From the NCBI RefSeq assembly GCF_014646815.1, contig NZ_BMNZ01000002.1, forward strand, positions 372,001 to 436,000: a stretch of DNA of 64,000 bases, read 5' to 3'. The notes under the pieces are model-generated. The model did no database searches. It was not told the origin of the DNA and saw only the letters and a program-made list of their open reading frames with translations. Below, in pieces: positions 27,707 to 42,199 of this stretch. This DNA comes from Terrabacter tumescens. Lineage in GTDB: Bacteria; Actinomycetota; Actinomycetes; Actinomycetales; Dermatophilaceae. The stretch's first letter is position 1. Each line of letters begins with the position of its first letter. The translations under genes and the position numbers were made by a program.

Positions 27707-30700
27707 GTGACATCCAACCCTGGCCACTGGGAGCCCGACTCCTCGCTCACCCGGGAGTTGGAAGACCAGTTCAGGCGAACAATTGAGTCCTATCGGGCCC
27801 AGCCCGCATTGATCACCGAACATGCGAACCACGAGGAGTCGATTCGCACGGGCGGCTACGCCAATCGGACGCTATTGGAGCTCATCCAGAACGCTGCCGA
27901 TGCCCTGGCCGGTGTGGCTGACGACGGGGGTGAGCGCCCAGGCAGGGTCGAGATAGTGCTCGACCCTGATCGACGCGTTCTCTACTGTGCGAACGCTGGC
28001 AGGCCCTTCTCTGCCAGCGGCCTGCAAGCGGTGACCATGGCGTACCTCAGCGGCAAGCGGGGCGACGAGATCGGCCGATTCGGTCTAGGCTTCAAGTCGG
28101 TCCTGGCGGTGTCCGAGTCCCCCCACGTTTTCAGTCGCTCAGTGTCCTTCCGATTCAACGCGGACCAGGCGAATGAAGAGCTTAGGAGCGTGAAAAGCGT
28201 TCCCAGGTACCCCATCCTTCGAACCGCGACAGCCCTGGGGGCGGCGGAAGAGTTCGAGAAGGATCGGGTTCTCGCTGGCCTTGCTCATTGGGCGACGACG
28301 ATCGTCAAACTTCCCGATGCGACCAACCTGGAGCGACTGAGACACGAGATCACGTCGTTCAAGTCTGAGTTCCTCTTGTTCGTGGGTGCTGTTCGCGAGG
28401 TGAGGATGCGGATTCTGGGGTCAGAACCTTACGAGACGAGCCACGTCTCGCGAGACCTGGGCGACGGCCGCTTCGCGATTGCGCGACCAGATGGTCAGGA
28501 CGACGAGTGGCTCGTGGCCAGCCGGATGCACGCACCGTCGCCGGAAGCGCGCCACGAGGTCGGGGAAGCAGTCTCGCGCGACAAGATCAAGGTCACGGTG
28601 GCGGTTCCTGTGCAACGGAGCCGAATAACCTCTGGAGAGTTCTGGTCGTACTTCCCGCTTCAGGACAAGAGCTCGGTGGGAGCACTGCTCAACGCACCCT
28701 GGAGCGTGAACGACGACCGGACCAACCTGCTGGACAATCGCTATAACCAGGAAATCATCCGTACGCTTGCGGACCTCTTTGTTTCGCTGCTCACGCGAGT
28801 GCGTTCGGACGACGAGCCGGCGGCCCATCTGGATTACCTGCCGGCCCGAGAGAGGGACCAGGAAAGTCGTGGCTTCGCGAGCGATATCCTGCGCGCCCAC
28901 ATCCTGCGATCTGCTGGCACAGGCCAGTACATCCCTGACGCAGCGGGCGATCTGCGGAACGGCTCTGAGCTGCGTCCACTCGATACGTCGATCCGCTTGG
29001 ACGCTACGGTGCACCAAGCATGGATCAGATCGCCGAATACGACTAATGACGTGCCACATTGGCACTGCTACAAGACCCCGCAGCGGGCCACGCGTCTTAG
29101 AGACCTCTTCGTCGCAGCGCAGGAGATCGAGCTCGACCCCAGCGCTCGCGACGTCCGGGCAGCGCTCGAGCGGATGCCCAAACGCGGCTTGTTGACCTGG
29201 CTGCGCGAGTGGGCGGACGGAGACGATCCGCAGTCGGCTGCCAATGCCTTCAGGACCGTGGTGAACAATGCCTCTCTTGAGGACATCTCCTCGGCCAAGG
29301 TGATCCCGACTTCGGACGGCATGAGGTCACTCGACGATCGCAGTGTGGTCTTTCTCCACCAGGAAGAGGGCCTGGTCGTCGACGGCGCCGTCTTCGTGAA
29401 CCCCGACTTTCTGGCAGAGGACCGGGTCGAAGCCTTACTTCGCGACCGTGGCTTCCGGGACCTTGATCCTGAGGCAATCCTCAACGCACGCTTGGCCATG
29501 TTGCCGGTGGATCCGACCGATGAGGACCTCGAGACGCTTTGGGACGCAGTGCTCTCTGTCAGCATTCCCGTTGCAGTCAAGACCATGACGAAGTCGACGG
29601 CGTCGATCAAAGTACCCACGCGTGACGGTGCCTGGGCGTGGCCCCAGCAAGTCGTCGATCTGGATGTATCGCTACCCGAATTCTTTGGGCGGCTTCTCGA
29701 CCGCAGCCGTTGCCTGCCGGATGTCGCACACCGGCTGGGGGTCGTCCGAAGTCCGGTGAAGGACTTCTCGGTCGAGGACGAGTGGCACTACACAGACTAC
29801 GTGCACGCCGTCTTAGGAGACCTGAATGGCCGACGGGGGTCCGGGGAACGTCCGACGGAACGTTTCGAGTTCAACCCAGGAGCAGGTCCTGGGCCGTTCT
29901 CTGCCCTGATGATGTTGCGCGACGCAGATGCATCGAAGGAGTTGCGTGCGTCATGGACGACGGCGCTGCTGTCTCTGCCCGACAGCGACTGGGCCGTAGA
30001 CGATCTCGACACCGGACGGCAATTCGACGTTCAGTCGCCCACCCGGTGGGCCGTGGCGAACGCAGGACTGCTGCCGACCTCGCGCGGGTATCGAGCGCCT
30101 GACGCGGTAGTTGCGTCGTCGCTGCTCAAGTTCGGGTCGCTGCTTCCCTTGTACAAGGGGCCGCTTCAGGTCCAACACGCACTTGACCTGCCGGACGAGC
30201 TCGACGCCGTGCCACGATGCGTGCTTCGCGAGATGCTCGAGGCGGACATTTTCCCGTCGGTGGAAAACGCCGTGTTGGCGGAGTTCGTTCTCACGGCGAC
30301 CAGAGTCGGGTTCGACGGCGAAAAGCCGGCGACTATTCCTGCAAGAGTCAAACGAGCGGTTGAGGCGCATCCTCCGTCGGCCGTGTTCCTGGCGTCGACG
30401 GAGGACGAGGAGGAGTTACTCCGCAATCGTCAGCGCCCGTATCTCAGAGTGGAACCGTCCCAGGTGGAGGAACTGGTCGAGATCGTCGGCTGCCGTCGCT
30501 TCGCCGACAGCTTCTCGTTCGCCATGGTTGTTGAGGGGCAACAAGAGTCCCAGCGGATTCTCGATGTCTACACGGGCCTTCGGACGTTCTACGGTGCTGC
30601 GCTCGGTTCGGCGAAGATCACGCGGGCGCTGCTCATAGCGAAGCGCGTTGTGACGGAGGATGGTGTCGAGGACCAGCCGCTCGATTGGCATCTAGACGGC

Positions 30701-32425
30701 CAGGACCTAATCGTCGGAAGTGACGCCGATGAGCGCCGTGCATTGGAGTTCGTCAACGAAGCGTTCGGCCTCGGGTTGGACAACGCACGTCTGTCGTCGG
30801 TGCTCAGGGCGGGCCTTGATCACAAGCTCGAGTTGCTTCGTCAGCAAGCACAGTCCATCGAAAGCGATGCGGACCGTTTGGACCTCTACATCGGTCCGGA
30901 CGATCTCAAGGAGGCGCTGCCTACCGGCCTTTGGAGCGCGCTCGAAGGCCAGGGGTTGGTTGACCACCACACCTCGGTGGCTGAGTTGTTCTTGGTTGTC
31001 TACGGCTCCGACTCATTGCGCATGCTCGAGAGCCTCTTTCGTGAGGCCGGGTTCACAGACGTGCCGGAGCGGTGGGCGGGCCTTCCCGCGGCCATCTCCT
31101 GGGTTCGAAAAATGGGCTTCGGCACCGAGTATGCCGGCCAGCGCAATCAGCCTCGCCCGGAGGAATTCGTCGTCGCGGGGGCGGTTCGGCTCAACAAGCT
31201 GCACAGCTACCAGAAGAGAATCAGCGAAGACCTGCGGACGGTTCTCACGCAGCCGTCGGCCAACGGTCCTGCGCAGAAGGGCATGGTTGAGCTCCCGACG
31301 GGCGCGGGCAAGACGCGAGTCGCGACCGAGACCGTTCTGAGGCTGTTCATGGACGAGGTCCTCTCCGGCGTTGTCCTCTGGATCGCGCAGTCGGCTGAGC
31401 TGTGCGAGCAGGCCGTGCAGACCTTCCAGACAGTTTGGCGGTATCTCGGCGACGAACGTCCGCTGACCATCGGTCGTCTGTGGGACACCAACACCGTGCA
31501 CGAGCCCGACACCGAACTTGCAGTCGTCGTCGCGACCGACGCGAAGATCCGTTCGATAAAGGATCGACCCGAGTACGGCTGGCTCAGCACTCCTCAAGCC
31601 GTGTTCATCGATGAGGCGCACCGAGCGGGCGGCTCAGCCCAATACACGTCCATCTTGCGCTGGCTGGGTGTCGACGGCCGTAGTTGGGAACGCCCGCTCG
31701 TGGGCCTGTCGGCGACTCCCTTCAAGGGTCGGGCGGGGGAGCACAGCGGAACGGAGGAGTTGGCGAGGCGATTCGGCAAGAACCGGCTGGCACTGCCGGG
31801 CGAAGATCCCTACAAGCAACTGGTCGAGCTCGGGGTGCTCGCGAGGGTGAAGCACGAGGTGCTGCCCTCGGGAGTCGAGATCGACCTCACGGGGCGGGAG
31901 CGCACAGCGCTGCAGTCGAACAAGCTGATCGACCGCAACGTGTACGAGCGCATCGGACGGAACGAGCAGCGCATGCGTGTCCTCATCGGCCACATTCTGC
32001 AGACCCTCGAGAAGCACCCCGACTGGCCCATCCTGGTCTTCACACCGAGTGTGCTTTCAGCGCAGGTGCTCGCCGCGTCACTGCGGTACCGGAAGGTCGC
32101 AGCGGAATCGGTGAGCGGACAAACGGGCCGGCAGCAGCGTCGCAAGGTGATACACGAATTCCAGGAAGGCAAGGTTCAGGTTCTCGCCAATTGCGACCTC
32201 CTCGTTCAAGGATTCGATGCCCCGGGTGTCAGGGCTCTTTACATCGCTCGTCCGACATTCAGCCCCGGCGCCTACATTCAGATGGCAGGCCGCGGACTAC
32301 GTGGCAGCGAGAACGGAGGAAAGGATGAGTGCCTCATCGTTGACATGGCCGACAACTGGGGCGCTCTGAACGGCTCGCTGGGCTACCGTGAGTACGAGGA
32401 GCTATGGACGGAGCAGGGCGAATGA
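27707..32425 (+). CDS. GHKL (sacsin-like) ATPase fused to SF2 helicase
   Basis: The 1572-residue protein has two ATPase modules. The N-terminal GHKL/HSP90-type fold shows the N-box LLELIQNAADAL near residue 57, a variant second box CANAGRPFSASGL near 100 and the glycine box GRFGLGFKSVL near 124, as in sacsin-like proteins. A long middle region (about 350-1150) has no recognisable motif. The C-terminal helicase has Walker A ELPTGAGKTRVATE near 1195, DEAH in VFIDEAHRAGG near 1302, GLSATPFKG near 1331 and motif VI QMAGRGLRG near 1525. The GTG start is preceded by AAGGAGA. Its stop overlaps the next gene by 4 bases. It probably senses or remodels foreign DNA for the DISARM-like array; that role is inference. 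Confidence 0.8.
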   Translation: MTSNPGHWEPDSSLTRELEDQFRRTIESYRAQPALITEHANHEESIRTGGYANRTLLELIQNAADALAGVADDGGERPGRVEIVLDPDRRVLYCANAGRPFSASGLQAVTMAYLSGKRGDEIGRFGLGFKSVLAVSESPHVFSRSVSFRFNADQANEELRSVKSVPRYPILRTATALGAAEEFEKDRVLAGLAHWATTIVKLPDATNLERLRHEITSFKSEFLLFVGAVREVRMRILGSEPYETSHVSRDLGDGRFAIARPDGQDDEWLVASRMHAPSPEARHEVGEAVSRDKIKVTVAVPVQRSRITSGEFWSYFPLQDKSSVGALLNAPWSVNDDRTNLLDNRYNQEIIRTLADLFVSLLTRVRSDDEPAAHLDYLPARERDQESRGFASDILRAHILRSAGTGQYIPDAAGDLRNGSELRPLDTSIRLDATVHQAWIRSPNTTNDVPHWHCYKTPQRATRLRDLFVAAQEIELDPSARDVRAALERMPKRGLLTWLREWADGDDPQSAANAFRTVVNNASLEDISSAKVIPTSDGMRSLDDRSVVFLHQEEGLVVDGAVFVNPDFLAEDRVEALLRDRGFRDLDPEAILNARLAMLPVDPTDEDLETLWDAVLSVSIPVAVKTMTKSTASIKVPTRDGAWAWPQQVVDLDVSLPEFFGRLLDRSRCLPDVAHRLGVVRSPVKDFSVEDEWHYTDYVHAVLGDLNGRRGSGERPTERFEFNPGAGPGPFSALMMLRDADASKELRASWTTALLSLPDSDWAVDDLDTGRQFDVQSPTRWAVANAGLLPTSRGYRAPDAVVASSLLKFGSLLPLYKGPLQVQHALDLPDELDAVPRCVLREMLEADIFPSVENAVLAEFVLTATRVGFDGEKPATIPARVKRAVEAHPPSAVFLASTEDEEELLRNRQRPYLRVEPSQVEELVEIVGCRRFADSFSFAMVVEGQQESQRILDVYTGLRTFYGAALGSAKITRALLIAKRVVTEDGVEDQPLDWHLDGQDLIVGSDADERRALEFVNEAFGLGLDNARLSSVLRAGLDHKLELLRQQAQSIESDADRLDLYIGPDDLKEALPTGLWSALEGQGLVDHHTSVAELFLVVYGSDSLRMLESLFREAGFTDVPERWAGLPAAISWVRKMGFGTEYAGQRNQPRPEEFVVAGAVRLNKLHSYQKRISEDLRTVLTQPSANGPAQKGMVELPTGAGKTRVATETVLRLFMDEVLSGVVLWIAQSAELCEQAVQTFQTVWRYLGDERPLTIGRLWDTNTVHEPDTELAVVVATDAKIRSIKDRPEYGWLSTPQAVFIDEAHRAGGSAQYTSILRWLGVDGRSWERPLVGLSATPFKGRAGEHSGTEELARRFGKNRLALPGEDPYKQLVELGVLARVKHEVLPSGVEIDLTGRERTALQSNKLIDRNVYERIGRNEQRMRVLIGHILQTLEKHPDWPILVFTPSVLSAQVLAASLRYRKVAAESVSGQTGRQQRRKVIHEFQEGKVQVLANCDLLVQGFDAPGVRALYIARPTFSPGAYIQMAGRGLRGSENGGKDECLIVDMADNWGALNGSLGYREYEELWTEQGE

Positions 32426-33939
32426 TGCTTGTCCCGTCCCTGGCGGACATCGAGGCGACAGCGCGCAGCGGGGCCGAGCGACGGGTAGCGAGGCTGCTCC
32501 GAGACGTGGAAGGCGATCCCGATGCCGTCGCCTTCTACTCGGTCGGACTCCGCTCGCACGGGTACAAGCAACAGGCCGAGGCCGATTTCGTCATTCTCTG
32601 GCGCGGCAAGGTGATCGTCGTCGAGGTCAAGGGTGGCGGCGTGCGCAAGCACGACGGAATTTGGTACACCATCGACCGCCGGTCGGACTGGCACAAGCTG
32701 CAGTCCTCGCCGATGGAGCAGGCACGATCTGCAGCGTTCGCGCTGAGAGACATTCTCAGACAGCAGGGGGTCGGCTGGTACTGGCACGAGGCGGTGGTCG
32801 TTACCCCTGACATCGACGCGCCACCCGGCGCCGTCGACTGGAAGCCGTCACATTGGCTGGCGCGTGATGCGATGACGGCTGGCGCACTCCCAGCGTGCCT
32901 GGACGCAGTGGTCTCCGATGCGCGCCCAGCACCGGCTTCGGAGAAGATCGCGGGCCTCCGCGACCTGCGTACCCGCCTCTTCGGGGAGTTCACCCGGATG
33001 CCGGTCATCGACGCACAACGGGGCGCGGTGATTGAGGAACAGAACCGGGCAACGGCCGGTCAGGCACGTGTGCTGGCCGCGCTCGCTCGCAACGAGCGGG
33101 TGCTCGTCGTCGGTGGGGCCGGGACCGGAAAGTCGTTGGTACTCGTCGAGGCGGCCAAGCAGGAGGCGGAGCGCGGACGGTCGGTCCTGGTCACCTTCCG
33201 CTCACCCTCTCTGTCACAGTACTTCACTCCACACCTCGACAACCACGCCGTGGACGTGGTCCCTTTCGACGACTTGGACGCGTCACAGGCGTATGACGTC
33301 GTCCTCGTCGACGAGGCTCAGGACATGATGTCGGCCGACGCCATGGACAGACTCGACACCGTCATCGCGCGGGGCAGAGCGGCCGGCCGCTGGCGGATGT
33401 TCCTGGACCCGAACAACCAGGCGCACGTCGACGGCCGGTTCGACAGTGACGTGGCGGAACTCGTCGCGCAGGAGGCGATCACCGTCGACCTGTCCCTGAA
33501 CGTGAGGAACACGCGGGCGATCGTGCACGTCGTCCAGGAGTATCTGGGCGCCGACGTCGGTGATCCCGGGGTCGTCAGTGGCGAGCGCGTGCAATGGCAC
33601 ACGACCGAGAGCGCCGTCGACCTGAATGACGGTCTGAAGGTCGCGGCGGATCTTGTCGCGGAGGGGGCGCGGGGAGCTGACGTCTGGGTGATCGATCCTC
33701 GATCCGTTGCCCCGAGAACCACGGTCAACGACGTCGTCGTCATCAGCCCTCGCTTCGCGAAGGGGCTTGAAGCCGAGCACGTCGTCGTCTGTGGCCTACC
33801 CGACGAGCTCGACTCTTCAGGGCTGGCGGCCTTCTACGTAGCGGTGACGCGCGCACGCGTGTCCCTGCACATCGTGCTCTCCCGGGACGACAGGCGCCGG
33901 CTGCAGCGCGTCGTCCGACGACGAACGGCTGAAGGATGA
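32422..33939 (+). CDS. NERD-domain protein with SF1 (UvrD-like) helicase
   Basis: The 505-residue protein starts with a NERD (nuclease-related) domain of about 130 residues, whose catalytic-type residues appear in QAEADFVILWRGKVIVVEVK (Asp and the E-x-K). The helicase follows: Walker A VVGGAGTGKSLVLVEA near 231, LVDEAQDMMS near 297, the SF1 motif LSLNVRNT near 357 and VAVTRARVSLHIVLS near 472. The helicase is short for UvrD. The first of two adjacent ATGs overlaps the previous stop (ATGATG), and its own stop overlaps the drmA-like start by 4 bases, so it is part of the same translational unit. It is likely a DNA-processing nuclease-helicase of the island. Confidence 0.8.
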   Translation: MMLVPSLADIEATARSGAERRVARLLRDVEGDPDAVAFYSVGLRSHGYKQQAEADFVILWRGKVIVVEVKGGGVRKHDGIWYTIDRRSDWHKLQSSPMEQARSAAFALRDILRQQGVGWYWHEAVVVTPDIDAPPGAVDWKPSHWLARDAMTAGALPACLDAVVSDARPAPASEKIAGLRDLRTRLFGEFTRMPVIDAQRGAVIEEQNRATAGQARVLAALARNERVLVVGGAGTGKSLVLVEAAKQEAERGRSVLVTFRSPSLSQYFTPHLDNHAVDVVPFDDLDASQAYDVVLVDEAQDMMSADAMDRLDTVIARGRAAGRWRMFLDPNNQAHVDGRFDSDVAELVAQEAITVDLSLNVRNTRAIVHVVQEYLGADVGDPGVVSGERVQWHTTESAVDLNDGLKVAADLVAEGARGADVWVIDPRSVAPRTTVNDVVVISPRFAKGLEAEHVVVCGLPDELDSSGLAAFYVAVTRARVSLHIVLSRDDRRRLQRVVRRRTAEG

Positions 33940-36900
33940 CGCTCACACCCGCCCAGAAGCTGGTTCTCCAGCACCTGCAATCCGCCTACATCGGACCGGA
34001 GAGCGGCGAGACGGAGGTGATTCACAACCCGCCGAACAGGCAGTACGCAGTGGGGATGCTGTTCCCGCGGGACGCTGCGCCCGGTCTCGACGACGGCCGA
34101 GCCGATCCCGAGGGTGGTGAGGCGGACGTCGACGGGATGACGGGGTTCGACGGTGACGTCGAGGAGAACGGAGCAGTCGTTCCCATCGCCGAGGACTGGC
34201 GACCGTCGTCCGTTGCGATCTCCTTCATCACCGACGCCGAGGCAGTCTTCTCTGACGTCGCCGGCGCGACGTACACCGCTGTCGAGGGTGACGGCCCGCC
34301 GAGCTGGCGTCGCGTACCGTTCGCCATCAGTGCGCTTCGACTGAGTCAGGATCAGCGGATCCAGGAACACACCGTGGGCGAGGTGCCGATCGAGATCGGT
34401 TCCCGCTGGCGCACCCTGGGTGACGCCTATCTTGTGACCGTTCACCTGCGCGTGCTGCGTGCTTCCAGCGGCGACGACCGCCTTGACGCGACGAACATGC
34501 TCTATCAGGTGTCCCTCGCAGTGTCTCCTGACTCGGCTGGGACCATCCGTGAGTACGACACCCGTCGTCAGTTCGCTGTCGACGACGAATCCGCAGAACT
34601 ACGCCTGCGGTTCAGGAACAAGAAGGTGTATGCCGTCGGCCACGGGATGGCTGCCGACTGGACGGTTGTCGGTGGTGCCTGCACACAGGTGCGCCTTGAG
34701 TCGGTCCCCTACTTCGTCGTTCCGGACGTGGAGACCAAAGGGTTCCCCCACTCGACGATGGAAGCTGATGCGCTGCGCCTGGAACATCTTGCTTCACTCG
34801 ACTCGAATACCCACCCGGTGCTCACATCGCTCAACGCGTTCGTTAAGGCGTTCGGCACGTGGGTCGGTGAGCAGAAGGAGCGGATCGCCGAATTCGGGTC
34901 GGACGCTGCCGTGGCGGCGCGGATTGTCGAGCGCTCCGACGTCGCCCTGTCACGTATGACGCGCTCGGTGGAACTACTCGCCGACGAGCGGAACAGCGAG
35001 CTCCGGCTCGCGTTCTCGCTCGCGATGTCCGCGATGCGCTTGCAGATGCGCCAGGCATCGATCAACCGTGACGGCTCGGACCCCGAGCCGCGCTGGCGTC
35101 CCTTCCAGCTCGGTTTCCTTCTGGTCGCGCTCTCATCGACCGTTGACGAAACGCATGATGATCGAGGGCTTGTCGACCTCATCTGGTTCCCGACGGGAGG
35201 CGGCAAGACCGAGGCGTATCTGGGCCTCGCAGCGATCGAGATCTTCCGGAGACGACTGCACGACGGGCCGGCCGGTGGGGGAACCGCGGTGCTCACGCGG
35301 TACACGCTCCGCCTTCTCACGTCCCAGCAGTTCCAGCGTGCCGCCTCCCTCGTCTGCGCAATGGAGTTGCTACGGCGTGCAGACCGGATCGCGGACTCAC
35401 GGGCCGAAGGCATGGCACCTTTCTCGATCGGCCTGTGGGTCGGCAACGAGGTGACCCCGGGCACACGACGCGATGCCAAGGTGGCCCTGGAACGACTGCA
35501 CAGGGCGGCTCGTCCTGACGAGGCGAACCAGTTCCAAGTCGAGAGCTGCCCGTGGTGCGCTACGTCGCTCCTGCCAGGCATCCGCTCGTCGAGCACGGAC
35601 GAGTACGGCATCCGTATGGTCGGACACGACATCGTCATTCACTGCGTGAATCCGTCGTGCGAGTTCTTCGATGAGATTCCTGTCCGCGTCGTGGACGAGA
35701 TGTTGTACGAAAGCCCGCCCACAATCCTCCTCGCGACCGTCGACAAGTTCGCGCGTCTGCAATTCCGGCCGGATGCGGGTCGCCTGCTCGGTCTCAACAC
35801 GCCGTTCAGGCAGCCGTCGATGATCATTCAGGACGAGCTCCATCTGCTCTCGGGGCCTCTCGGGACGACGGTCGCGGCTTTCGACGCCGTCGTACAGATG
35901 CTGCTGTCCGCGGGAGGCTCGGCACCCAAGATCGTCGCCTCCACCGCGACCATCCGGGCGTCGGACGAGCAGGTCAAGGGGCTGTACGGCAGGCCGGTCG
36001 CCCTCTATCCGCCCTCGGGTCTGGACGACGACGAGACGTTCTTCTCCCGTCCTGTCCCCAGTGGTGAAGGACGCCTCTATCTGGGGCTGATGCCTCAAGC
36101 CCTGTCCCAGATGTCAGCAACGGTGTCCGCGTCAGCGCCCCTGATCGAGATACCGCAGGTCCTCGCGGGCCGTCTGGGCCCAAGCGCAGGTCTCGATGCG
36201 TACTGGACAGCAGTCATGTACCACAACAGCCTGCGCGAACTCGGGAGGACGGGCACGCTCGTCGTCGACGACGTCAACGGGCGCCTCGAGCCTCGAGCCG
36301 AACGTTCGGGTTTGGAGCTCCGTACCGTACGCGCGGGACGTGTGCTCGAGCTCACGAGCAGGCGCGGGCCGGAGGAATTACCGAACGACCTGCGCGAACT
36401 TCGCCGAAGCGCGGACGAGTCGGATCAAGCCGTCGACGTCGTCCTTTCGTCGAACATGCTCTCGGTCGGGATCGACATCCCGCGGCTGGCGCTGATGCTG
36501 ATGGTGGGACAGCCCAAGACGACATCGGAATACATCCAGGCGACGAGCCGGGTCGGACGAGGCGCAGTTCGAGGTGTCGTTGTCACCCTGTTCCGCTCCA
36601 ATCGAGCGCGCGATCGCTCCCACTTCGAGACGTTCCGCTCCTACCATGAGGCGCTGTACCGAAGTGTGGAGCCGACCAGCGTGACTCCATGGTCGCTCGC
36701 GTCACGAGACCGGTCTCTCGCGGGCGCTCTGGTCGCGCTGGTGCGTCATCTGGGGCCCGGTTTGGCCGCGAACGACCGTGCCAAGGATCTGGATCTCGAC
36801 TCGCCGGCGCAGTTCGCATCCATCCAGGGCCTGGTGGAGGGGTTCCTCGACCTGGTGGCAAAGGCCGACCCGGCCGAGGCGTCGGACACTCGGGAACGGG

Positions 36901-37130
36901 TCAACGCCCTGCTGAGCCAGTGGGACCGCCGGGCCCAGGACGCCCGAACCTCAGGGCAGGGCCTGCTTTACGACAGAACACGAACTGAGGACGACGCGTT
37001 GTTGAAGAGGTTCGGGCAACCGGGCGTTGGTTGGCTCGTTGCCGACTCCATGCGTTCGGTCGAGCCGAACGTGGCCGTGGATGTCCGCGAACCATTCGAG
37101 GAGGGGTCCCGTGCAGCGGATCAGACATGA
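33936..37130 (+). CDS. drmA: DrmA-like helicase of a DISARM-type system
   Basis: The 1064-residue protein shows the DrmA pattern: Walker A WFPTGGGKTEAYLGL near 418, a long insertion with two zinc pairs (CPWC near 538 and CVNPSC near 570), Walker B in IIQDELHLLSGPLG near 632, STATIRAS near 668 and motif VI ATSRVGRGAVRGVV near 870. The GGGKTEAY and QDELHLL forms are typical of this helicase group and differ from ordinary DEAD helicases. The N-terminal 400 residues are family-specific. In DISARM, DrmA and DrmB form a DNA-binding complex that loads on foreign 5-prime overhangs; that is known for the family. It is coupled to the upstream gene by ATGA and overlaps the next gene by 20 bases. Confidence 0.85.
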   Translation: MTLTPAQKLVLQHLQSAYIGPESGETEVIHNPPNRQYAVGMLFPRDAAPGLDDGRADPEGGEADVDGMTGFDGDVEENGAVVPIAEDWRPSSVAISFITDAEAVFSDVAGATYTAVEGDGPPSWRRVPFAISALRLSQDQRIQEHTVGEVPIEIGSRWRTLGDAYLVTVHLRVLRASSGDDRLDATNMLYQVSLAVSPDSAGTIREYDTRRQFAVDDESAELRLRFRNKKVYAVGHGMAADWTVVGGACTQVRLESVPYFVVPDVETKGFPHSTMEADALRLEHLASLDSNTHPVLTSLNAFVKAFGTWVGEQKERIAEFGSDAAVAARIVERSDVALSRMTRSVELLADERNSELRLAFSLAMSAMRLQMRQASINRDGSDPEPRWRPFQLGFLLVALSSTVDETHDDRGLVDLIWFPTGGGKTEAYLGLAAIEIFRRRLHDGPAGGGTAVLTRYTLRLLTSQQFQRAASLVCAMELLRRADRIADSRAEGMAPFSIGLWVGNEVTPGTRRDAKVALERLHRAARPDEANQFQVESCPWCATSLLPGIRSSSTDEYGIRMVGHDIVIHCVNPSCEFFDEIPVRVVDEMLYESPPTILLATVDKFARLQFRPDAGRLLGLNTPFRQPSMIIQDELHLLSGPLGTTVAAFDAVVQMLLSAGGSAPKIVASTATIRASDEQVKGLYGRPVALYPPSGLDDDETFFSRPVPSGEGRLYLGLMPQALSQMSATVSASAPLIEIPQVLAGRLGPSAGLDAYWTAVMYHNSLRELGRTGTLVVDDVNGRLEPRAERSGLELRTVRAGRVLELTSRRGPEELPNDLRELRRSADESDQAVDVVLSSNMLSVGIDIPRLALMLMVGQPKTTSEYIQATSRVGRGAVRGVVVTLFRSNRARDRSHFETFRSYHEALYRSVEPTSVTPWSLASRDRSLAGALVALVRHLGPGLAANDRAKDLDLDSPAQFASIQGLVEGFLDLVAKADPAEASDTRERVNALLSQWDRRAQDARTSGQGLLYDRTRTEDDALLKRFGQPGVGWLVADSMRSVEPNVAVDVREPFEEGSRAADQT

Positions 37131-38925
37131 CTTGCGACTCTCGGAGACCGTCACACCCTTCGGCGTGGGTGCCGTGGTGGACATCCGTGGCGAGTCGCTG
37201 ATCGCCCCCGACACCTCCTGGTGGGACAAAAGGTTTGCGCCGGAGGTTCACTGCGAGAGGCTGGTCGAGCGGCTCGGTCCGTGCGTGTTACGCGAAGCGC
37301 CGACTCACTCAGGTCGCGCCGGCAAGGACACCGCGGGCCTCCTCTATTGGCGCTTTCCCACCTGGCGGTTCTGCGAGCGTTGTTCCGCGCTGTCCCAGCG
37401 CTCCGGCAAGGACAGGGGGAAGTGGACCAACAAGTGTGAGTGCGGGGGAATGCTCATCCCCATGCGGTACGTGGCAGTCTGCGAGAAAGGTAGCCACCTC
37501 CAGGACGTCCCGTGGTTCATGTGGGCACACCGTGGACACGACGCCGGCGTCACCGAAGCAGTGCGTTTCTGCCGGGCGTACAAGGAACTTCGCTTCGTCC
37601 GCGCATCGAAAGCCGGGGAAGGCCTGCGGTCGCTTCGTGTGGAGTGCGGTGGGTGCAGGCGATCCCGTCCGTTGTCCGAACTGGTCATGAAGGAAGCGCT
37701 GACCCGCGACGGCATCAAGTGTCGGGGAGTTCAACCCTGGCAAGAGCCGCTCCCGGGCAACATCTGCGAGCACCACCTCGTCGGCGTGCAGCGCGGCGCA
37801 ACCGGGAACTACATCGCGGAGAGGATCTCTGCGCTCGACATACCTGAGGAAAAGCCGATGGCTGTGGCGCTCGCTGACGCGGTGCGGGCACACAGCGACT
37901 TCAGTCGAGTGGTCGCCGACAACGGGGGTCCGAAGGCCGAGATGATCGCCGGGTGGATTGCGGACGAGCTCGGAGCGTCCGTCGACTACGTCCTGAGTCT
38001 GGCGGCTTCCGTGGACGAGCAGTCGCACGACGACGTGCTGGCCGATCTCAAGGACGGTGAGTGGGCGGCTTTCCAGAGCAAGCTCAAGGAGCCCGGTCGA
38101 GACCTGAGCGAGGGCGACTTCGTCGTGGATGCGTGGTCGACGGCCGAGCAGCCTCATGTGCCGGCGACCTTGGCGGCACGGCTGACCGCGGTGGGACAGG
38201 TGAGAAGGGTTCGGGAAGTGCGAGCGCTGAAGGGTTTTCGCCGGTACTCCGCCGACGCGGACCTGATCCCCGCCGACCTCTCGATCGAAGGCAGACGCAA
38301 GCCGACGTTTCCGGCGATCGAAATGTTCGGGGAGGGGATCTTCCTCCAGTTCGACGAACAGTTCCTCGAGAGTTGGGAGCAACACGTCGAAGTCCGCAGG
38401 CGTGCCGGGATCCTGGTACAACGTCGGACGGAGACGCCGTGGGGAGATCGACTCGATGTACCGGAGGCGCGCTACGTGGCGTTGCACACCATTGCTCACC
38501 TGCTGATTCGGCGTCTGGCGTACGCCTCGGGCTACTCGTCGGCATCGCTTCAGGAGCGAATCTATGCGCGCACCGACCGTTCCGATCCCACAGCGGGGAT
38601 CCTGGTGTACACCGCCGCAGGAGACGCGCAAGGCACCTTGGGAGGGCTGGTCCGGCTGGGAGATCCGGAGCGGCTCGTCCCGCTAGTGCTGGCCGCGCTC
38701 GACGACGCCGACGTCTGCTCCAACGATCCGGTCTGCATCGAGAGTGACCGGCAAGGCGCCTCGAGCCTGAACCTGTCGGCGTGCCACGGCTGTTCTCTCG
38801 TGAGTGAGACGTCGTGCGAGACGGCCAACCGGCTACTGGACCGTCAGCTGGTTCTCGGCGGGCGAGACGTGCCGGGGCTGCTCGAAGGGGTCCTCACCGA
38901 GATCAGAGGCGGCACGTCTTGCTGA
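37111..38925 (+). CDS. drmB: DrmB-like protein with DUF1998 domain
   Basis: The 604-residue protein begins inside the drmA-like gene (20-base overlap) at a GTG preceded by GAGGAGGGG. It opens with a strand-rich PFGVGAVVDIRGESL that matches DrmB. Zinc-type cysteines follow: CERCSAL near 90, CECGG near 110 and CGGCRRS near 175. The C-terminal DUF1998 region has ALHTIAHLLIRRLAYASGY near 458 and a cysteine cluster (CSNDPVC near 535, CHGCSLVSETSC near 555). DrmB partners DrmA in DISARM. Being the last gene of the plus-strand operon, it closes the core of the island, and no drmC (phospholipase-D type) gene follows. Confidence 0.85.
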   Translation: MQRIRHDLRLSETVTPFGVGAVVDIRGESLIAPDTSWWDKRFAPEVHCERLVERLGPCVLREAPTHSGRAGKDTAGLLYWRFPTWRFCERCSALSQRSGKDRGKWTNKCECGGMLIPMRYVAVCEKGSHLQDVPWFMWAHRGHDAGVTEAVRFCRAYKELRFVRASKAGEGLRSLRVECGGCRRSRPLSELVMKEALTRDGIKCRGVQPWQEPLPGNICEHHLVGVQRGATGNYIAERISALDIPEEKPMAVALADAVRAHSDFSRVVADNGGPKAEMIAGWIADELGASVDYVLSLAASVDEQSHDDVLADLKDGEWAAFQSKLKEPGRDLSEGDFVVDAWSTAEQPHVPATLAARLTAVGQVRRVREVRALKGFRRYSADADLIPADLSIEGRRKPTFPAIEMFGEGIFLQFDEQFLESWEQHVEVRRRAGILVQRRTETPWGDRLDVPEARYVALHTIAHLLIRRLAYASGYSSASLQERIYARTDRSDPTAGILVYTAAGDAQGTLGGLVRLGDPERLVPLVLAALDDADVCSNDPVCIESDRQGASSLNLSACHGCSLVSETSCETANRLLDRQLVLGGRDVPGLLEGVLTEIRGGTSC

Positions 38926-39012
38926 ACCGTTCGCCCGCCACGCCACTTACGAGAGATGGGCCAGGCGAGCGGCGGCGTCAGGCGAAGGCCACGTTCTCGG
39001 GCCGCCGTTCCG

Positions 39013-40347
39013 TCACGAGGTGCGGTCCTCCCGTGCGGTTGACTGCAGCAGTTCATCGAGGACGCCGCCGTGATCGGCTTCCGCGATCCGGCGCACCGTC
39101 GAGGCGAGCGTTCTCCCTGAGATGAGCACCATCGGGTACTGGCCGTCGATCATCTCTGCGTGCGCTTGCCGGGAGAAGGTCCCGGCCGTCACAAAGACGC
39201 CGATCCAGCCCGGTCGCAGTCGCGCCGCCACGCGCGCGAGTTGATCGGGTGAAATGGACGAGCCCGGGTGAACGCCTCCGGCGCGTCCCAAGACAATAAG
39301 AGGCGTGCTGGCGCCCTCGGGGCCGATGTCCAGGCGACCGGTGAAGCTGACGCCACTGTCTCCCGGGAATTGACAGAGCCAGCCTTCCGTGTACCGCGCT
39401 CCCGACTGGCGAAGCGCTTCAGAAGCAACCTGGGAGGCCAGGGACGCGAACGCTTCCTCGCGGGAGTCGTAGAACGACGATATGCGGCCAAGAATGTCGG
39501 CCTCGGGTGAGCACGGGTGTGGCTGCTGATCCTGTGTCTCTCGGACCGTGGTCGCCAGTGCCTCACGGCGTACGGCCGGAACGGCGCGATGACCCTCGCG
39601 CGTCCATCGGGCCCAGGACGGAGGTGCGAACCGGAGAGACTCGAGAGCGGACAACCGAGGATTCCTCCGGTCGTCGATCCAGCGCAGGTCGATGCCGTCG
39701 GTTTCAGCGTCCGTGACAACGGCGAGATCGAAGCGCACATTGGGAAAGCTCAGCCCCGTCAGGGGGTCGCGCTGTACGACGTACTCGGTCTTCTCGATGA
39801 TGGCGGCGCCACAGAACTCGACGTGACCCTTGTGGACGGCCTGGCCGTCGCGATGGACGGTGATCCCCCTGAAGACGAGCAGCGGCGGCGCCAGCAGTCG
39901 CTCGTCGACCGTGGTCCCTGAGTGCAAACGGGCGGCTTCCAACAGGATGCGGTTACCTTTGGTCGCACCCGGGAGCCCCGGTGCCCCGGGCTTGTGGTCC
40001 CCGAAATACCTGATGTGGCCGTGCACCAGATCGAACTCGTCATGCCACGGAGTGCCCTCCTGGCCCGCTTTCCAGGGGCTGGACCTGATCGCGATGACAG
40101 GGCGGCGGACCGCATCCGGGCCCTCCACTTCCGCAGTGGCGTTGATGCCGGCCTCCAACATGACACGTGGGAGGCCGAGCGGGGCCGGGCTGAGCATCCA
40201 GTGGCAGTTGACGAAGCCGTCTACCCTCGGGTCGCTCTGATTAGCGCGTTTGGAGTAGCGCAGGGTGTCTCGCATGACAAGATGCCGCGGCGTCTCGACG
40301 ACGATCTCGACGCGAGGGTGGACAAAGTCCGCCTTGGGCTCGTCCAC
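39013..40347 (-). CDS. AspBHI/MspJI-type restriction endonuclease with altered catalytic motif
   Basis: The 444-residue protein has an N-terminal AspBHI-type recognition domain (about 20-215) with SSPWKAGQEGTPWHDEFDL and HGHIRYFGDHKPGAPG, and a C-terminal Mrr-like nuclease domain (about 285-430) with GWIGVFVTAGTFS and YPMVLISGRTL. In this family an Asp is followed about 15 residues later by Q-x-K. Here the Asp is present in TGRLDIG near 340, but the later site reads VLGRAGG, so both Gln and Lys are replaced. The enzyme may be inactive, or may use other residues. The start is GTG at 40347. Family members cut DNA near 5-methylcytosine. It is transcribed in the same direction as the methyltransferase, 118 bases downstream. 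Confidence 0.8.
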   Translation of the reverse strand: MDEPKADFVHPRVEIVVETPRHLVMRDTLRYSKRANQSDPRVDGFVNCHWMLSPAPLGLPRVMLEAGINATAEVEGPDAVRRPVIAIRSSPWKAGQEGTPWHDEFDLVHGHIRYFGDHKPGAPGLPGATKGNRILLEAARLHSGTTVDERLLAPPLLVFRGITVHRDGQAVHKGHVEFCGAAIIEKTEYVVQRDPLTGLSFPNVRFDLAVVTDAETDGIDLRWIDDRRNPRLSALESLRFAPPSWARWTREGHRAVPAVRREALATTVRETQDQQPHPCSPEADILGRISSFYDSREEAFASLASQVASEALRQSGARYTEGWLCQFPGDSGVSFTGRLDIGPEGASTPLIVLGRAGGVHPGSSISPDQLARVAARLRPGWIGVFVTAGTFSRQAHAEMIDGQYPMVLISGRTLASTVRRIAEADHGGVLDELLQSTAREDRTS

Positions 40348-40465
40348 GTGCGCTCCTGTCGACCGTTTTCAAAGCCTCCTCACCCAGATTGCTGGCCCTG
40401 GCTCAGGAGTCGTCCGAAAGCGACTGTAGCCGCGGCTGCGGCGTGCCTTGCCGGGAGAGCTGCGA

Positions 40466-41593
40466 TTAGTTCAGCTTTTGGGCGAGATGGGCGCCTAGTG
40501 CGGCCCCGAGGGGAATCGGCACGGCGTTACCGATCTGTCGGGCGATGGAGGTCTTGGACCCCACGAATCGGAAATCATCGGGGAAACCTTGCAGTCGTGC
40601 CGCTTCGAAATGGGTGATAGCTCGGTGCTGTGTCGGGTGCAGGTAGCGGCCCTTCTCAGGCTTGAAGAACTCGGTGCGAATCGTCACCGACGGCTTCTCC
40701 CACACCAGGCGCCCCATGACGTCACCGGAGCCGGTGGTGTGTTTCTTCCAGCACGGCGTCTTGAGGCCTTCTGGGAGGTCGAAGCGGCCACCGCCGTACG
40801 GAATGGATCGGAATCGCTCAAGTGAGGTGTCGGCGTAGTGTCGGCCGATGTGCAGCTCGGAACTCTTGAAAGACCCCTTCAGTAAGCGGCTTCGGAATTC
40901 CAGCTGCCGTGGAGGCAGCTCTCGCTGACCGGTGAACGGCGTGATTCCCTCGAACGCATCGCGAACGGTCCGATAGCCTTCTGCAACGCTGGACTGAGGG
41001 AAATCGGGAGCGTCGAGATCCTTGTGCGCACCCATGACCACGACGCGCTTGCGCACTTGGGCCGCGCCGAATTCGGCCGAGTTCAGCACCTGCGGGAGGA
41101 AGCGGTAGTCGCTGAGCGGGCCCGACTCATCGAAGGACGCCGCGAAGATGTCGAACTGTGGCGACTTGAGGAAGGCCGGGACGTTTTCCATGAGGAACAT
41201 CTGCGGCTTCGCCCGCCTGATCGTCTCCACGTAGTGGCGCCAGAGAGTGTTGCGCTCGTCGTTCGCGTCCTGTTTGCCAAGGGGAGAAAAACCTTGGCAC
41301 GGCGGGCCGCCGACCACGATGTCGACGTCCGGAACGTCCTCCTCGTGCAGCCACTGCTCGATGCCTCCGGCGTACACCACGTCGGTGAAATTCTCGGCGT
41401 AGCTGGCGGCGGCCTCCACATCCATTTCCACGGCGCGTACGGTGCGGAAGCGGCTGCTGCCTTCGTGGAGTCCCGCCGTCAGGCCGCCGGCTCCTGCGAA
41501 CAGGTCCAGCACGGTCAATTCTCGGTACGGCCGGGCGTCGGAGGCTTCCGACGATGGCGACGAGCCGTGGCGGGGCGAGGTCGTCGGGAGCAT
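40466..41593 (-). CDS. DNA cytosine-C5 methyltransferase
   Basis: The protein (375 residues from 41593, or 395 from an ATG at 41653) has the C5-methyltransferase motifs in order: motif I LDLFAGAGGLTAGL, the catalytic cysteine in GGPPCQGFSPLGK, FLMENVP, QVRKRVVVMG, and RQIGNAVP at the end. The target recognition region lies between about 225 and 310 and includes HYADTSLERFRSIPYGGG. No strong ribosome site precedes either ATG; the second was chosen because conserved sequence begins soon after it. Class 2 DISARM carries a C5 methyltransferase that protects self DNA, so this is the likely self-marking enzyme of the island. The target sequence cannot be read from the protein. Confidence 0.88.
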   Translation of the reverse strand: MLPTTSPRHGSSPSSEASDARPYRELTVLDLFAGAGGLTAGLHEGSSRFRTVRAVEMDVEAAASYAENFTDVVYAGGIEQWLHEEDVPDVDIVVGGPPCQGFSPLGKQDANDERNTLWRHYVETIRRAKPQMFLMENVPAFLKSPQFDIFAASFDESGPLSDYRFLPQVLNSAEFGAAQVRKRVVVMGAHKDLDAPDFPQSSVAEGYRTVRDAFEGITPFTGQRELPPRQLEFRSRLLKGSFKSSELHIGRHYADTSLERFRSIPYGGGRFDLPEGLKTPCWKKHTTGSGDVMGRLVWEKPSVTIRTEFFKPEKGRYLHPTQHRAITHFEAARLQGFPDDFRFVGSKTSIARQIGNAVPIPLGAALGAHLAQKLN

Positions 41594-41764
41594 GAAAGGG
41601 ACTGTAGCGGCATCCCCGGACAGGCCGTGGGACGTGACACCGAGCGCCGGCATGGGGTCCGTGGTTCGGGCACGGCCGACTCCGAGTTCATGATCGGGGT
41701 GCAGATCGGATGCCCGGTGCGCGGTCGCGCGCAGTCACCTGCGGACGGGTGCCACTATTGGGTC

Positions 41765-42199
41765 GTGGGTCTCATCGGACTGTCGACAACGCCGCAGGTC
41801 AGTGCCCGCATGAGTCGTCAGCGTCGACGCGACACGGCGCCGGAGCTCGCCCTGCGCAAGGTGCTCCATGCCCGTGGCCGGCGTTTCAGGGTCGACTGCC
41901 TCGTACCGGGACTGCCGAGACGTCGAGTGGACGTGCTTTTCACCCGAGCAAAGGTGGCGGTGTTCGTGGACGGCTGCTTCTGGCACATGTGCCCGGAGCA
42001 CTCGTCCCTGCCCGCGAGCAACAGCGAGTGGTGGGCCTCCAAACTGCGGATGAACCAAGAACGCGACGTGCAGACGACCAGTCGTCTCGAGCAGCTCGGT
42101 TGGACGGTGGTGCGCGTCTGGGAGCACGTTTCTGCCGAGGAGGCCGCGGATTGTGTGGACGTCGCACTGGGCTTTCTCAGGGCCCAGTCGTCGGGATGA
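41765..42199 (+). CDS. vsr: Very short patch repair endonuclease (Vsr)
   Basis: The 144-residue protein matches Vsr: RDTAPELALRKVLHARGRRF, VDVLFTRAKVAVFVDGCFWH with the catalytic Asp and His, CPEH, and QLGWTVVRVWEH. Vsr nicks at T:G mismatches made by deamination of 5-methylcytosine, so its place 172 bases from a divergent C5 methyltransferase is the expected pairing. GTG at 41765 gives the family length; GTG/ATG alternatives are 41690 (longer, low-GC-free tail) and 41810. It is the rightmost gene of the island. Confidence 0.85.
   Translation: MGLIGLSTTPQVSARMSRQRRRDTAPELALRKVLHARGRRFRVDCLVPGLPRRRVDVLFTRAKVAVFVDGCFWHMCPEHSSLPASNSEWWASKLRMNQERDVQTTSRLEQLGWTVVRVWEHVSAEEAADCVDVALGFLRAQSSG

What the first reader, a model, noticed from the sequence alone, without database searches (positions are those of the whole stretch)
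27707..42199. DISARM-like island with a GHKL-helicase, NERD-helicase and AspBHI-type nuclease, lacking DrmC
Seen: a plus-strand series of four overlapping genes (GHKL ATPase-SF2 helicase, NERD-SF1 helicase, DrmA-like, DrmB-like), then a minus-strand endonuclease and C5 methyltransferase, then a divergent vsr. Established: DISARM uses drmA, drmB and drmC plus a methyltransferase, with drmD or drmE in the described classes. Inference: this locus is a variant with the GHKL-helicase as accessory sensor or motor and the AspBHI-type nuclease replacing the missing phospholipase-D type DrmC. The lower GC and flanking broken genes show it is mobile. I am not aware of this exact gene set as a named class, but cannot search.
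Basis: partly seen in the sequence, partly recalled or inferred. Interest (0 to 1): 0.9.

Follow-up and report, generated by a model that had tools for sequence, protein, structure and literature searches.

The report
DISARM-related four-gene helicase defence operon
A bacterial operon of four helicase-related genes, recurring in many actinobacteria and related to the DISARM anti-phage system, appears to be a distinct and so far unnamed variant in which a different helicase-nuclease may take the place of DISARM's usual nuclease and the DNA-methylating gene beside it is swapped between loci.

Summary
The genes are as reported: sacsin/GHKL-SF2 helicase, NERD-SF1 helicase, DrmA and DrmB in one overlapping plus-strand operon, then an MspJI-family gene, a C5 methyltransferase and a divergent vsr. 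DrmB exceeds its curated cut-off; DrmA is a strong match below its equivalog cut-off. No DrmC, DrmD or DrmE was detected.

The unit recurs. Of 74 loci found with the GHKL-helicase as bait, 73 have DrmA and DrmB downstream in order on the same strand; 67 have an SF1 helicase between, 56 of them the NERD form. The four proteins co-vary (rho 0.89-0.95); methyltransferase and Vsr do not (rho about 0). A DrmC profile finds 0 of 74 loci, against 7 of 8 class I DISARM loci outside its seed. The DrmA lies outside the class I clade (AU p = 2e-6).

The NERD nuclease, with an invariant active site, is the better candidate effector. Mobility was not shown.

The open-licence papers searched name no such class. 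Verdict: new variant of DISARM; defence function untested.

The parts
27707..32425 (+). GHKL/sacsin-type ATPase domain (N-terminal ~400 aa), long central region with no family match, and C-terminal RadD-like SF2 helicase; core gene 1
   Evidence: NF047352 sacsin-type domain 70.7 bits (cut-off 50), though Pfam SACS is below its cut-off (23.7 vs 32.8); ResIII 56.5, Helicase_C 52.9; PADLOC TmtA 183.8 bits over residues 13-416 only. Predicted model of residues 1-1165, pLDDT 86.6, best PDB matches Hsp90 family at low TM-score. Present in 74 of 74 loci by construction, as the bait
32404..33939 (+). NERD (PD-(D/E)xK-type) nuclease domain plus SF1 helicase; core gene 2
   Evidence: PF08378 42 bits, residues 23-133. 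E59, D61, E74, K76, Walker A and DEAQD invariant in 36 of 36 aligned, of 54 available. Between GHKL-helicase and DrmA in 56 of 74 loci. Model pLDDT 83.5; best PDB matches Schlafen 11/14 and Dna2 at TMq 0.40-0.46
33936..37130 (+). DrmA-family SF2 helicase; core gene 3
   Evidence: NF038325 DrmAS 800.7 bits (below its equivalog cut-off of 950); PADLOC DrmA 638 bits; 466.8 bits to the solved DrmA 7s9v
34068..34202 (+). acidic, length-variable N-terminal segment of DrmA (residues 45-89), lying roughly where class I DrmA has its trigger loop
   Evidence: net negative in 45 of 45 rows in which the flanking motif was found; 30 of 75 rows had no motif match. Position relative to 7s9v, where the aligned part begins only at residue 121, so the equivalence to the trigger loop is inference
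37111..38925 (+). DrmB (DUF1998/MZB); core gene 4
   Evidence: NF038324 408.2 bits (cut-off 240), PF09369 31.8; start chosen from the GAGGAGG stretch and from overlaps in relatives
39013..40347 (-). MspJI-family protein with an SRA-like 5mC-binding domain and a degenerate nuclease domain (S334, R355, G357 in place of D, Q, K)
   Evidence: 611 bits to 4f0p; 7 of 7 homologues that cover the site keep D...QAK; catalytic domain less conserved than the SRA part, the reverse of its active relatives
40466..41653 (-). DNA C5-cytosine methyltransferase, motifs intact (DLFAGAGG, GPPCQ, ENV, GNAVP); the only PF00145 match in this genome
   Evidence: PF00145 202.9 bits; motifs; one match at E <= 0.001 in the whole genome
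41765..42199 (+). Vsr-type very short patch repair endonuclease (start codon approximate), divergent from the methyltransferase
   Evidence: TIGR00632 108.4 bits (cut-off 97.85), PF03852 55.5; start candidates

Best explanation
The locus is a DISARM-related defence system whose functional unit is four co-inherited subunits: GHKL-SF2 helicase, NERD-SF1 helicase-nuclease, DrmA and DrmB. Most likely mechanism: DrmAB (gated by an acidic N-terminal segment, as class I DrmA is by its trigger loop) loads on exposed single-stranded or 5'-overhang phage DNA. The Hsp90-like GHKL module acts as an ATP-driven clamp or licensing switch coupled to a RadD-like translocase. The NERD-SF1 protein unwinds and cuts the captured DNA in Dna2 style, filling the role for which DISARM has DrmC. 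The C5 methyltransferase with Vsr is a self-marking cassette that is regularly exchanged, and the MspJI relative in this copy is a dead nuclease, either a fossil of a modification-dependent enzyme or at most a 5mC reader. Shown here: gene content, conserved order, co-variation of the four, no detectable DrmC, loss of the MspJI active-site residues, integrity of the NERD active-site residues. Inferred: antiphage function, complex formation, order of events, the GHKL role, the acidic gate.
For: Family matches. DrmA and DrmB beside gene 1 in 7 of 7 relatives first examined; the SF1 gene is the NERD form in 4 and the UvrD form in 3 of these. In 74 loci: order gene 1-SF1-DrmA-DrmB on one strand in 67 (56 NERD, 11 UvrD), gene 1-DrmA-DrmB without SF1 in 5, mostly with overlapping frames. 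Pairwise distances of the four proteins co-vary at rho 0.89-0.95 over 43 NERD-type loci (0 of 300 permutations as high for each pair), while methyltransferase and Vsr against them give -0.13 to -0.01. DrmC profile 0 of 74 loci. DrmA tree and AU tests. NERD active-site and helicase motifs invariant in 36 of 36. Methyltransferase within the fetched stretch in 59 of 74, whereas the window's genome has no other PF00145 match. Mechanism of DrmAB, and DrmC being non-essential and often missing, from passages of PMC9142583.
Against: I did no experiment and found no report of one on this gene set. The NERD gene is not universal: 11 of 74 loci have a UvrD-type SF1 helicase in its place, 6 have no SF1 hit and 1 has it upstream of gene 1, so the NERD nuclease cannot be the sole effector in every relative. 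In L090 DrmAB lie on the other strand about 6.7 kb away. 15 of 74 lack a methyltransferase in the fetched stretch (some stretches are cut by contig ends). Methyltransferase and Vsr do not co-vary even with each other (rho 0.00), so saturation or a wrong choice of gene may add to the lack of signal. DrmA scores below its NCBIfam equivalog cut-off. Whole-chain TM-scores are low (about 0.2 for the GHKL model, 0.45 for the NERD model). Four loci carry DrmD and DrmMI instead of an SF1 gene, so the boundaries of the class are blurred. DrmC being dispensable in DISARM means that no replacement nuclease need exist.
Confidence: 0.6

Rival explanations
1. It is ordinary DISARM that has lost DrmC and gained unrelated neighbours: DrmAB plus the C5 methyltransferase do the work, and the GHKL- and NERD-helicases form a separate defence system that happens to sit upstream.
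For: DrmA and DrmB are genuine family members. NERD- or UvrD-type helicases also stand beside DrmAB without the GHKL gene. DrmC is described as non-essential and often missing (PMC9142583 passages). One bait locus, L090, has DrmAB apart from gene 1.
Against: GHKL-helicase as bait brings DrmA and DrmB in order on the same strand in 73 of 74 loci; distances of all four proteins co-vary at rho 0.89-0.95; reading frames overlap in most loci; the window's DrmA is kept out of the class I clade (AU p 1.8e-6).
Confidence: 0.2
2. One reading: the AspBHI/MspJI-type nuclease is the effector that replaces DrmC.
For: It lies beside DrmB and belongs to a nuclease family (PF18062 75.4 bits, PADLOC mREase_II 540 bits). 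A homologue with the catalytic residues also lies near DrmAB in L178.
Against: Catalytic D, Q and K are S, R and G in the window, whereas 7 of 7 homologues covering the site keep them. An MspJI profile matches 2 of 74 loci, the window and L048, where it is split over two frames. An active 5mC-dependent nuclease beside a C5 methyltransferase would also risk cutting its own genome (inference).
Confidence: 0.03
3. The four genes are a DNA-repair or anti-plasmid (anti-conjugation) machine rather than a phage defence system.
For: RadD-, YprA- and Dna2/RecD2-like proteins are among the matches and work in repair; patchy occurrence also fits plasmid exclusion.
Against: Patchy distribution, restriction enzymes or their relatives nearby in many loci (NaeI in 12 of 74, type IIG, Z1) and DISARM kinship point to defence.
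Confidence: 0.12

Closest known systems
DISARM class I (DrmD, DrmMI, DrmA, DrmB, DrmC)
   Same: DrmA and DrmB homologous and adjacent in the same order; a methyltransferase nearby; split YprA-type helicase and DUF1998 genes
   Different: No DrmC, DrmD or DrmMI in the window; two other helicase genes instead; DrmA in a different clade. A few relatives (L079, L080, L081, L083) combine the GHKL-DrmA-DrmB core with divergent DrmD and DrmMI
DISARM class II (DrmE, DrmA, DrmB, DrmC, DrmMII)
   Same: DrmAB plus a C5 cytosine methyltransferase (matches DrmMII profiles, best 156.7 bits, but DruM2 and MTase_II profiles score higher)
   Different: No DrmE or DrmC match at E <= 0.01 (no positive control for DrmE was run); class II DrmA was not in my tree, so the phylogenetic relation to it is untested
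ARMADA, BRIGADE, TALON and Druantia (YprA-family systems, PMC12458937)
   Same: YprA-family helicase at the centre; TALON also has a NERD nuclease (read in PMC12458937)
   Different: Here helicase and DUF1998 module are separate genes (the DISARM arrangement) and there is no BrxHII/PglX pair or TOTE-like gene. That preprint says its DISARM-like clade holds many uncharacterised classes; the terms GHKL, sacsin and HATPase do not occur in its main text
Tiamat (TmtA, sacsin/GHKL-type protein)
   Same: N-terminal 400 residues of gene 1 match TmtA profiles (E 1e-54)
   Different: The best TmtA profile is matched only at positions 8-406 of 1538; gene 1 has its own C-terminal SF2 helicase and three partners
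MspJI and NaeI cassettes with C5 methyltransferase and Vsr
   Same: The minus-strand nuclease gene, methyltransferase and vsr resemble restriction cassettes; [quoted passage not shown]
   Different: The MspJI copy lacks its catalytic residues in the window; NaeI is in 12 of 74 loci and MspJI in 2

Membership tests
DISARM (either class) | DrmA helicase and DrmB (DUF1998) present and adjacent | tested here: met
   DrmB over its curated cut-off, DrmA below the NF038325 equivalog cut-off (800.7 vs 950)
DISARM (either class) | DrmC (PLD nuclease) | tested here: not met
   no PADLOC match in P0001-P0007; own DrmC profile 0 of 74 loci; the same profile finds 10 of 11 class I regions, of which L120, L121 and L125 are in its seed, so 7 of 8 outside the seed, L123 being the miss. 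PMC9142583 says DrmC is often missing
DISARM class I | DrmD and DrmMI | tested here: not met
   absent in the window; found in only 5 (DrmD) and 4 (DrmMI) of 74 loci
DISARM class I | DrmA falls in the class I clade | tested here: not met
   tree of 76 DrmA; AU p 1.8e-6 against grouping the window with class I (quick LG+G4 tree, and two unlabelled rows were added to the class I group after seeing the first tree)
DISARM class II | DrmE | tested here: not met
   no DrmE among PADLOC matches of the core genes at E <= 0.01; no positive control for DrmE was run
DISARM class II | C5 methyltransferase DrmMII | tested here: inconclusive
   matches DrmMII profiles (156.7 bits) but DruM2 (301.8) and MTase_II (265.1) better
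DISARM class II | DrmA groups with class II DrmA | not tested
   no verified class II DrmA was available for the tree
[quoted passage not shown]
   DrmA and DrmB are separate genes; no BrxHII/PglX gene in the operon; definition read in PMC12458937
Tiamat | full-length TmtA match | tested here: not met
   best profile matched over residues 13-416 only
MspJI-type modification-dependent nuclease (P0005) | SRA-like 5mC-binding domain | tested here: met
   611 bits over residues 3-440; SRA part 67-71% identical to three close homologues; binding itself not tested
MspJI-type modification-dependent nuclease (P0005) | catalytic (D/E)..(D/E/Q)xK | tested here: not met
   S334, R355, G357; motif as given in PMC3874153; that D334, Q355 and K357 are the catalytic residues of MspJI is recalled, and fits the numbering
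Functional antiphage system | protection against phage | not testable with these tools
   needs phage challenge

The most novel reading that the evidence does not exclude
A four-helicase defence machine whose core is indifferent to the sequence specificity of its methyltransferase: the core stays constant while any C5 methyltransferase (with or without Vsr, NaeI or MspJI relatives) is plugged in, so self is told from non-self by DNA-end structure or by 5-methylcytosine in general, and a dead MspJI protein has been retained in this copy as a 5mC reader that restrains DrmAB on host DNA.
Probability: 0.12. Interest if true: 0.82.

Novelty: new variant of a known kind. Interest (0 to 1): 0.56.

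Why it matters
If it defends, it offers a natural experiment on open points of DISARM: which protein cuts the DNA, and whether the methyltransferase's sequence matters. The tight co-variation of four subunits beside an unlinked methyltransferase makes both questions directly testable by swapping methyltransferases and mutating the NERD site.

Tried and rejected
Nuclease replacing DrmC = AspBHI: rejected. DrmE hidden in the upstream genes: no PADLOC DrmE match in P0001 or P0002 (E <= 0.01), and no PADLOC match at all at E <= 1e-4 in seven upstream genes of other DrmAB loci, L133, L136, L141, L143, L153, L154, L156. Single origin of the GHKL pairing: the data reject one clade for all GHKL-linked DrmA (AU p 0.0003). 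Mobile island with an empty site: left-flank synteny to two same-genus genomes is ragged, the right flank had no match in the stretches fetched, and no tRNA lies in the window; left open. Phage or plasmid carriage of gene 1: plasmids 16 records, none with 80% coverage; phages 453 records, none with 80% coverage, the 20 listed being partial helicase-region matches; one viral contig with a distant relative (35%, residues 14-1560; L184), not followed. Second structural look (VIA-align) was unavailable. Literature: searches listed no paper that I recognised as naming this gene set (open-licence papers only; most listed papers were seen as listing and start of abstract). The original DISARM paper is not held and is recalled. 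Read beyond the listing: PMC12458937 parts 1-3 of 8, figure legends and found passages; PMC9142583, PMC9252829, PMC3874153, PMC4259335, PMC10482375, PMC9523054, PMC3710099 and PMC10952713 as found passages only.

Some stretches are cut by contig ends. One search used 43 of 74 loci (NERD-type with gene 1, NERD, DrmA, DrmB and C5M; L084 dropped), Vsr in 32 of them, taking the C5M and Vsr nearest to the core. The DrmA tree used 76 rows: most NERD-type rows were thinned to every fourth, and pieces under 700 aa plus L090 and L093 were dropped. The AU tests used 67 rows after dropping nine long or near-identical ones. Regions L120-L130 were called class I because they carry DrmD and/or DrmMI beside DrmAB, except L128, whose stretch is cut and shows DrmA, DrmB and DrmC only, so DrmC is part of its label.
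Full report
Observation. The plus strand carries four genes in one operon with overlapping frames: 27707-32425 (1572 aa), 32404-33939 (511 aa), 33936-37130 (1064 aa) and DrmB, listed from 37027 but more likely starting at GTG 37111 behind GAGGAGG and ending at 38925. Then come a minus-strand 444-aa gene (39013-40347), a minus-strand C5 methyltransferase (40466-41653) and a divergent vsr whose true gene is about 41765-42199. The GC content is 0.62-0.67 here, as part of a wider dip from about 22 to 48 kb.

Identities. Gene 1 has a sacsin/GHKL-type N-terminal domain (NF047352 70.7 bits, cut-off 50; Pfam SACS is below its cut-off) and a C-terminal SF2 helicase; its nearest solved helicase by sequence is RadD. 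Its N-terminal 400 residues match Tiamat's TmtA profiles, the rest does not. AlphaFold2 of residues 1-1165 with 47 rows has pLDDT 86.6, and its best PDB matches are Hsp90 proteins with low whole-chain TM-scores. Gene 2 is a NERD nuclease domain plus SF1 helicase; its best PDB matches are Schlafen 11/14 and Dna2, at TMq 0.40-0.46. E59, D61, E74, K76 and the Walker motifs are invariant in 36 of 36 aligned homologues, of 54 available. Gene 3 is DrmA (800.7 bits to NF038325, under its equivalog cut-off of 950; 466.8 bits to the solved DrmA 7s9v) and gene 4 is DrmB (408.2 bits, cut-off 240).

The 'AspBHI nuclease'. P0005 matches the structure entries 4f0p/4f0q/4r28 at 611 bits and AspBHI 4oc8 at 40 bits (PMC3874153 names 4F0P and 4F0Q as MspJI). 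At the three catalytic positions the window has S334, R355 and G357, where MspJI has D, Q and K. All 7 homologues that cover the site keep D...QAK. Among three close relatives the catalytic part is more conserved than the SRA part in each pair (85-89% against 78-87%), while P0005 shows the reverse (60-62% against 67-71%), as expected after loss of the nuclease. An MspJI profile matches 2 of 74 loci, the window and a split gene in L048. It cannot be the general replacement for DrmC. MspJI homologues elsewhere have a C5 methyltransferase in the stretch in 4 of 6 loci and vsr in 2 of 6; one of the six (L178) also lies near DrmA and DrmB.

Recurrence of the unit. In 197 related genomes, full-length gene-1 homologues were found in G000, G087, G145, G031 (with an internal stop), G113, G095, G141 and G033, and each of the seven relatives has DrmA and DrmB beside it. 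A scan of GTDB genomes with the seven-row alignment A1 gave 66 further loci; the record titles name actinobacteria, except one labelled Planococcus. Across the 74 loci (window included), gene 1, SF1 helicase, DrmA and DrmB follow each other in that order on one strand in 67 (56 NERD type, 11 UvrD type); 5 have gene 1, DrmA, DrmB without a detected SF1 gene; L084 has that order with its SF1 gene upstream of gene 1; and in L090 DrmAB lie on the other strand about 6.7 kb away at the edge of the stretch. C5 methyltransferase is in 59, vsr in 45, NaeI in 12, DrmD in 5, DrmMI in 4 and DrmC in 0. The methyltransferase stands on either side and on either strand. The window's genome has no second PF00145 match.

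One unit plus a swapped cassette. Over 43 NERD-type loci the pairwise distances of gene 1, gene 2, DrmA and DrmB correlate at rho 0.89 to 0.95, with 0 of 300 permutations as high for each pair. Methyltransferase or Vsr against any core protein gives -0.13 to -0.01, and against each other 0.00. The four genes thus share one history, and the methyltransferase cassette does not follow it. Saturation of methyltransferase distances or a wrong choice among several methyltransferases may add to the lack of signal; that methyltransferase and Vsr do not co-vary with each other either is a warning of this.

Place among DrmAB systems. In 396 sampled genomes of the phylum, 24 have DrmB over the cut-off. 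Of 24 regions fetched, eleven (L120-L130) were called class I DISARM from DrmD and/or DrmMI beside DrmAB, L128 from DrmA, DrmB and DrmC alone in a cut stretch. A DrmC profile finds 10 of these 11; L120, L121 and L125 are in its seed, so 7 of 8 outside the seed, L123 being the miss; it finds 0 of 74 gene-1 loci. Of the 13 other regions, 8 have an SF1 helicase of the NERD or UvrD type near DrmAB (L137 is cut by its contig end), against 0 of 11 in class I, and two (L131, L132) also have a full-length gene 1. On plasmids of Rhizobium, Azospirillum, Deinococcus and Rhodococcus, DrmAB also has UvrD- or NERD-type neighbours without gene 1. In a 76-row DrmA tree the window sits in a 17-row clade, within 28 rows all linked to gene 1; class I forms a separate 16-row group with two unlabelled rows; the UvrD-type gene-1 loci lie in another 14-row clade that also holds two loci without gene 1. 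AU tests reject the window with class I (p 1.8e-6) and reject one clade for all gene-1-linked DrmA (p 0.0003). Gene 1 therefore pairs with at least two DrmAB lineages. These are quick trees with a simple model, and the class I test group was completed after the first tree was seen. Class II DrmA was not included.

Mechanism. DrmAB of Serratia is autoinhibited by a trigger loop and binds ssDNA and 5' overhangs; DrmC is non-essential and often missing (passages of PMC9142583). The window's DrmA has an acidic segment (residues 45-89) roughly at that place, net negative in all 45 rows where the flanking motif could be found, of 75 rows; that it gates DNA is inference. The most economical scheme is DrmAB as the DNA-end sensor and motor, the NERD-SF1 protein as helicase-nuclease effector, gene 1 as ATP-driven licensing clamp plus translocase, and the methyltransferase with Vsr as an interchangeable self-mark and its repair partner. 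Against a universal NERD effector: 18 of 74 loci lack it at that position.

Known or new. PADLOC's type I DISARM requires DrmA, B, C, D and MI, and type II requires A, B, C, E and MII (PMC9252829 passage), so the window is neither. ARMADA, BRIGADE and TALON differ in architecture; the preprint that defines them states that its DISARM-like clade holds many uncharacterised classes. Searches of open-licence papers turned up no description of this gene set that I could recognise; subscription papers were not searchable. I rate it a new variant of a known kind, with defence function unproven.

Noticed in passing
L079, L080, L081, L083: The GHKL-DrmA-DrmB core without an SF1 gene stands back to back with a divergent DrmD, DrmMI/type IIG and a further ~700-aa protein (a DEAD-box helicase in L080): a possible bridge between this variant and class I DISARM.
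   Followed up: partly
L178 1449-13999: An MspJI homologue with the catalytic residues (same gene as in L160), a C5 methyltransferase, vsr, a partial GHKL-helicase match and DrmA/DrmB lie together; DrmB is in two frames.
   Followed up: no
L131 7485-16300; L147 6998-15534; L157 5436-14955: Order UvrD-type helicase, DrmA, DrmB, NERD helicase: two SF1 helicases flank DrmAB in an actinobacterium and on Rhizobium and Azospirillum plasmids.
   Followed up: no
L042, L044, L052, L088, L089, L091-L093 and others: A ~708-aa HTH protein (cluster c6, 13 loci; partial match to PDC-M33A) often next to an unknown ~390-aa protein (c13, 7 loci) beside the core; no known function.
   Followed up: partly
L133 9050-11746, L136 5661-7733, L141 6046-7584, L143 11295-12905: Genes upstream of DrmAB (three of them upstream of a NERD helicase) in loci without gene 1 match no PADLOC or Pfam family: candidate unknown partners.
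   Followed up: partly
L023 10920-15642: Gene 1 of this relative is interrupted by a stop (two open pieces), while the following genes are open.
   Followed up: no
L080: Record titled Planococcus sp. although its DrmA groups with a Microbacterium locus (L079); possibly a mislabelled assembly.
   Followed up: no
G000:C6:144769-146283: A ~1061-aa open frame joining a PLD domain and an SF2 helicase elsewhere in the window's genome.
   Followed up: no
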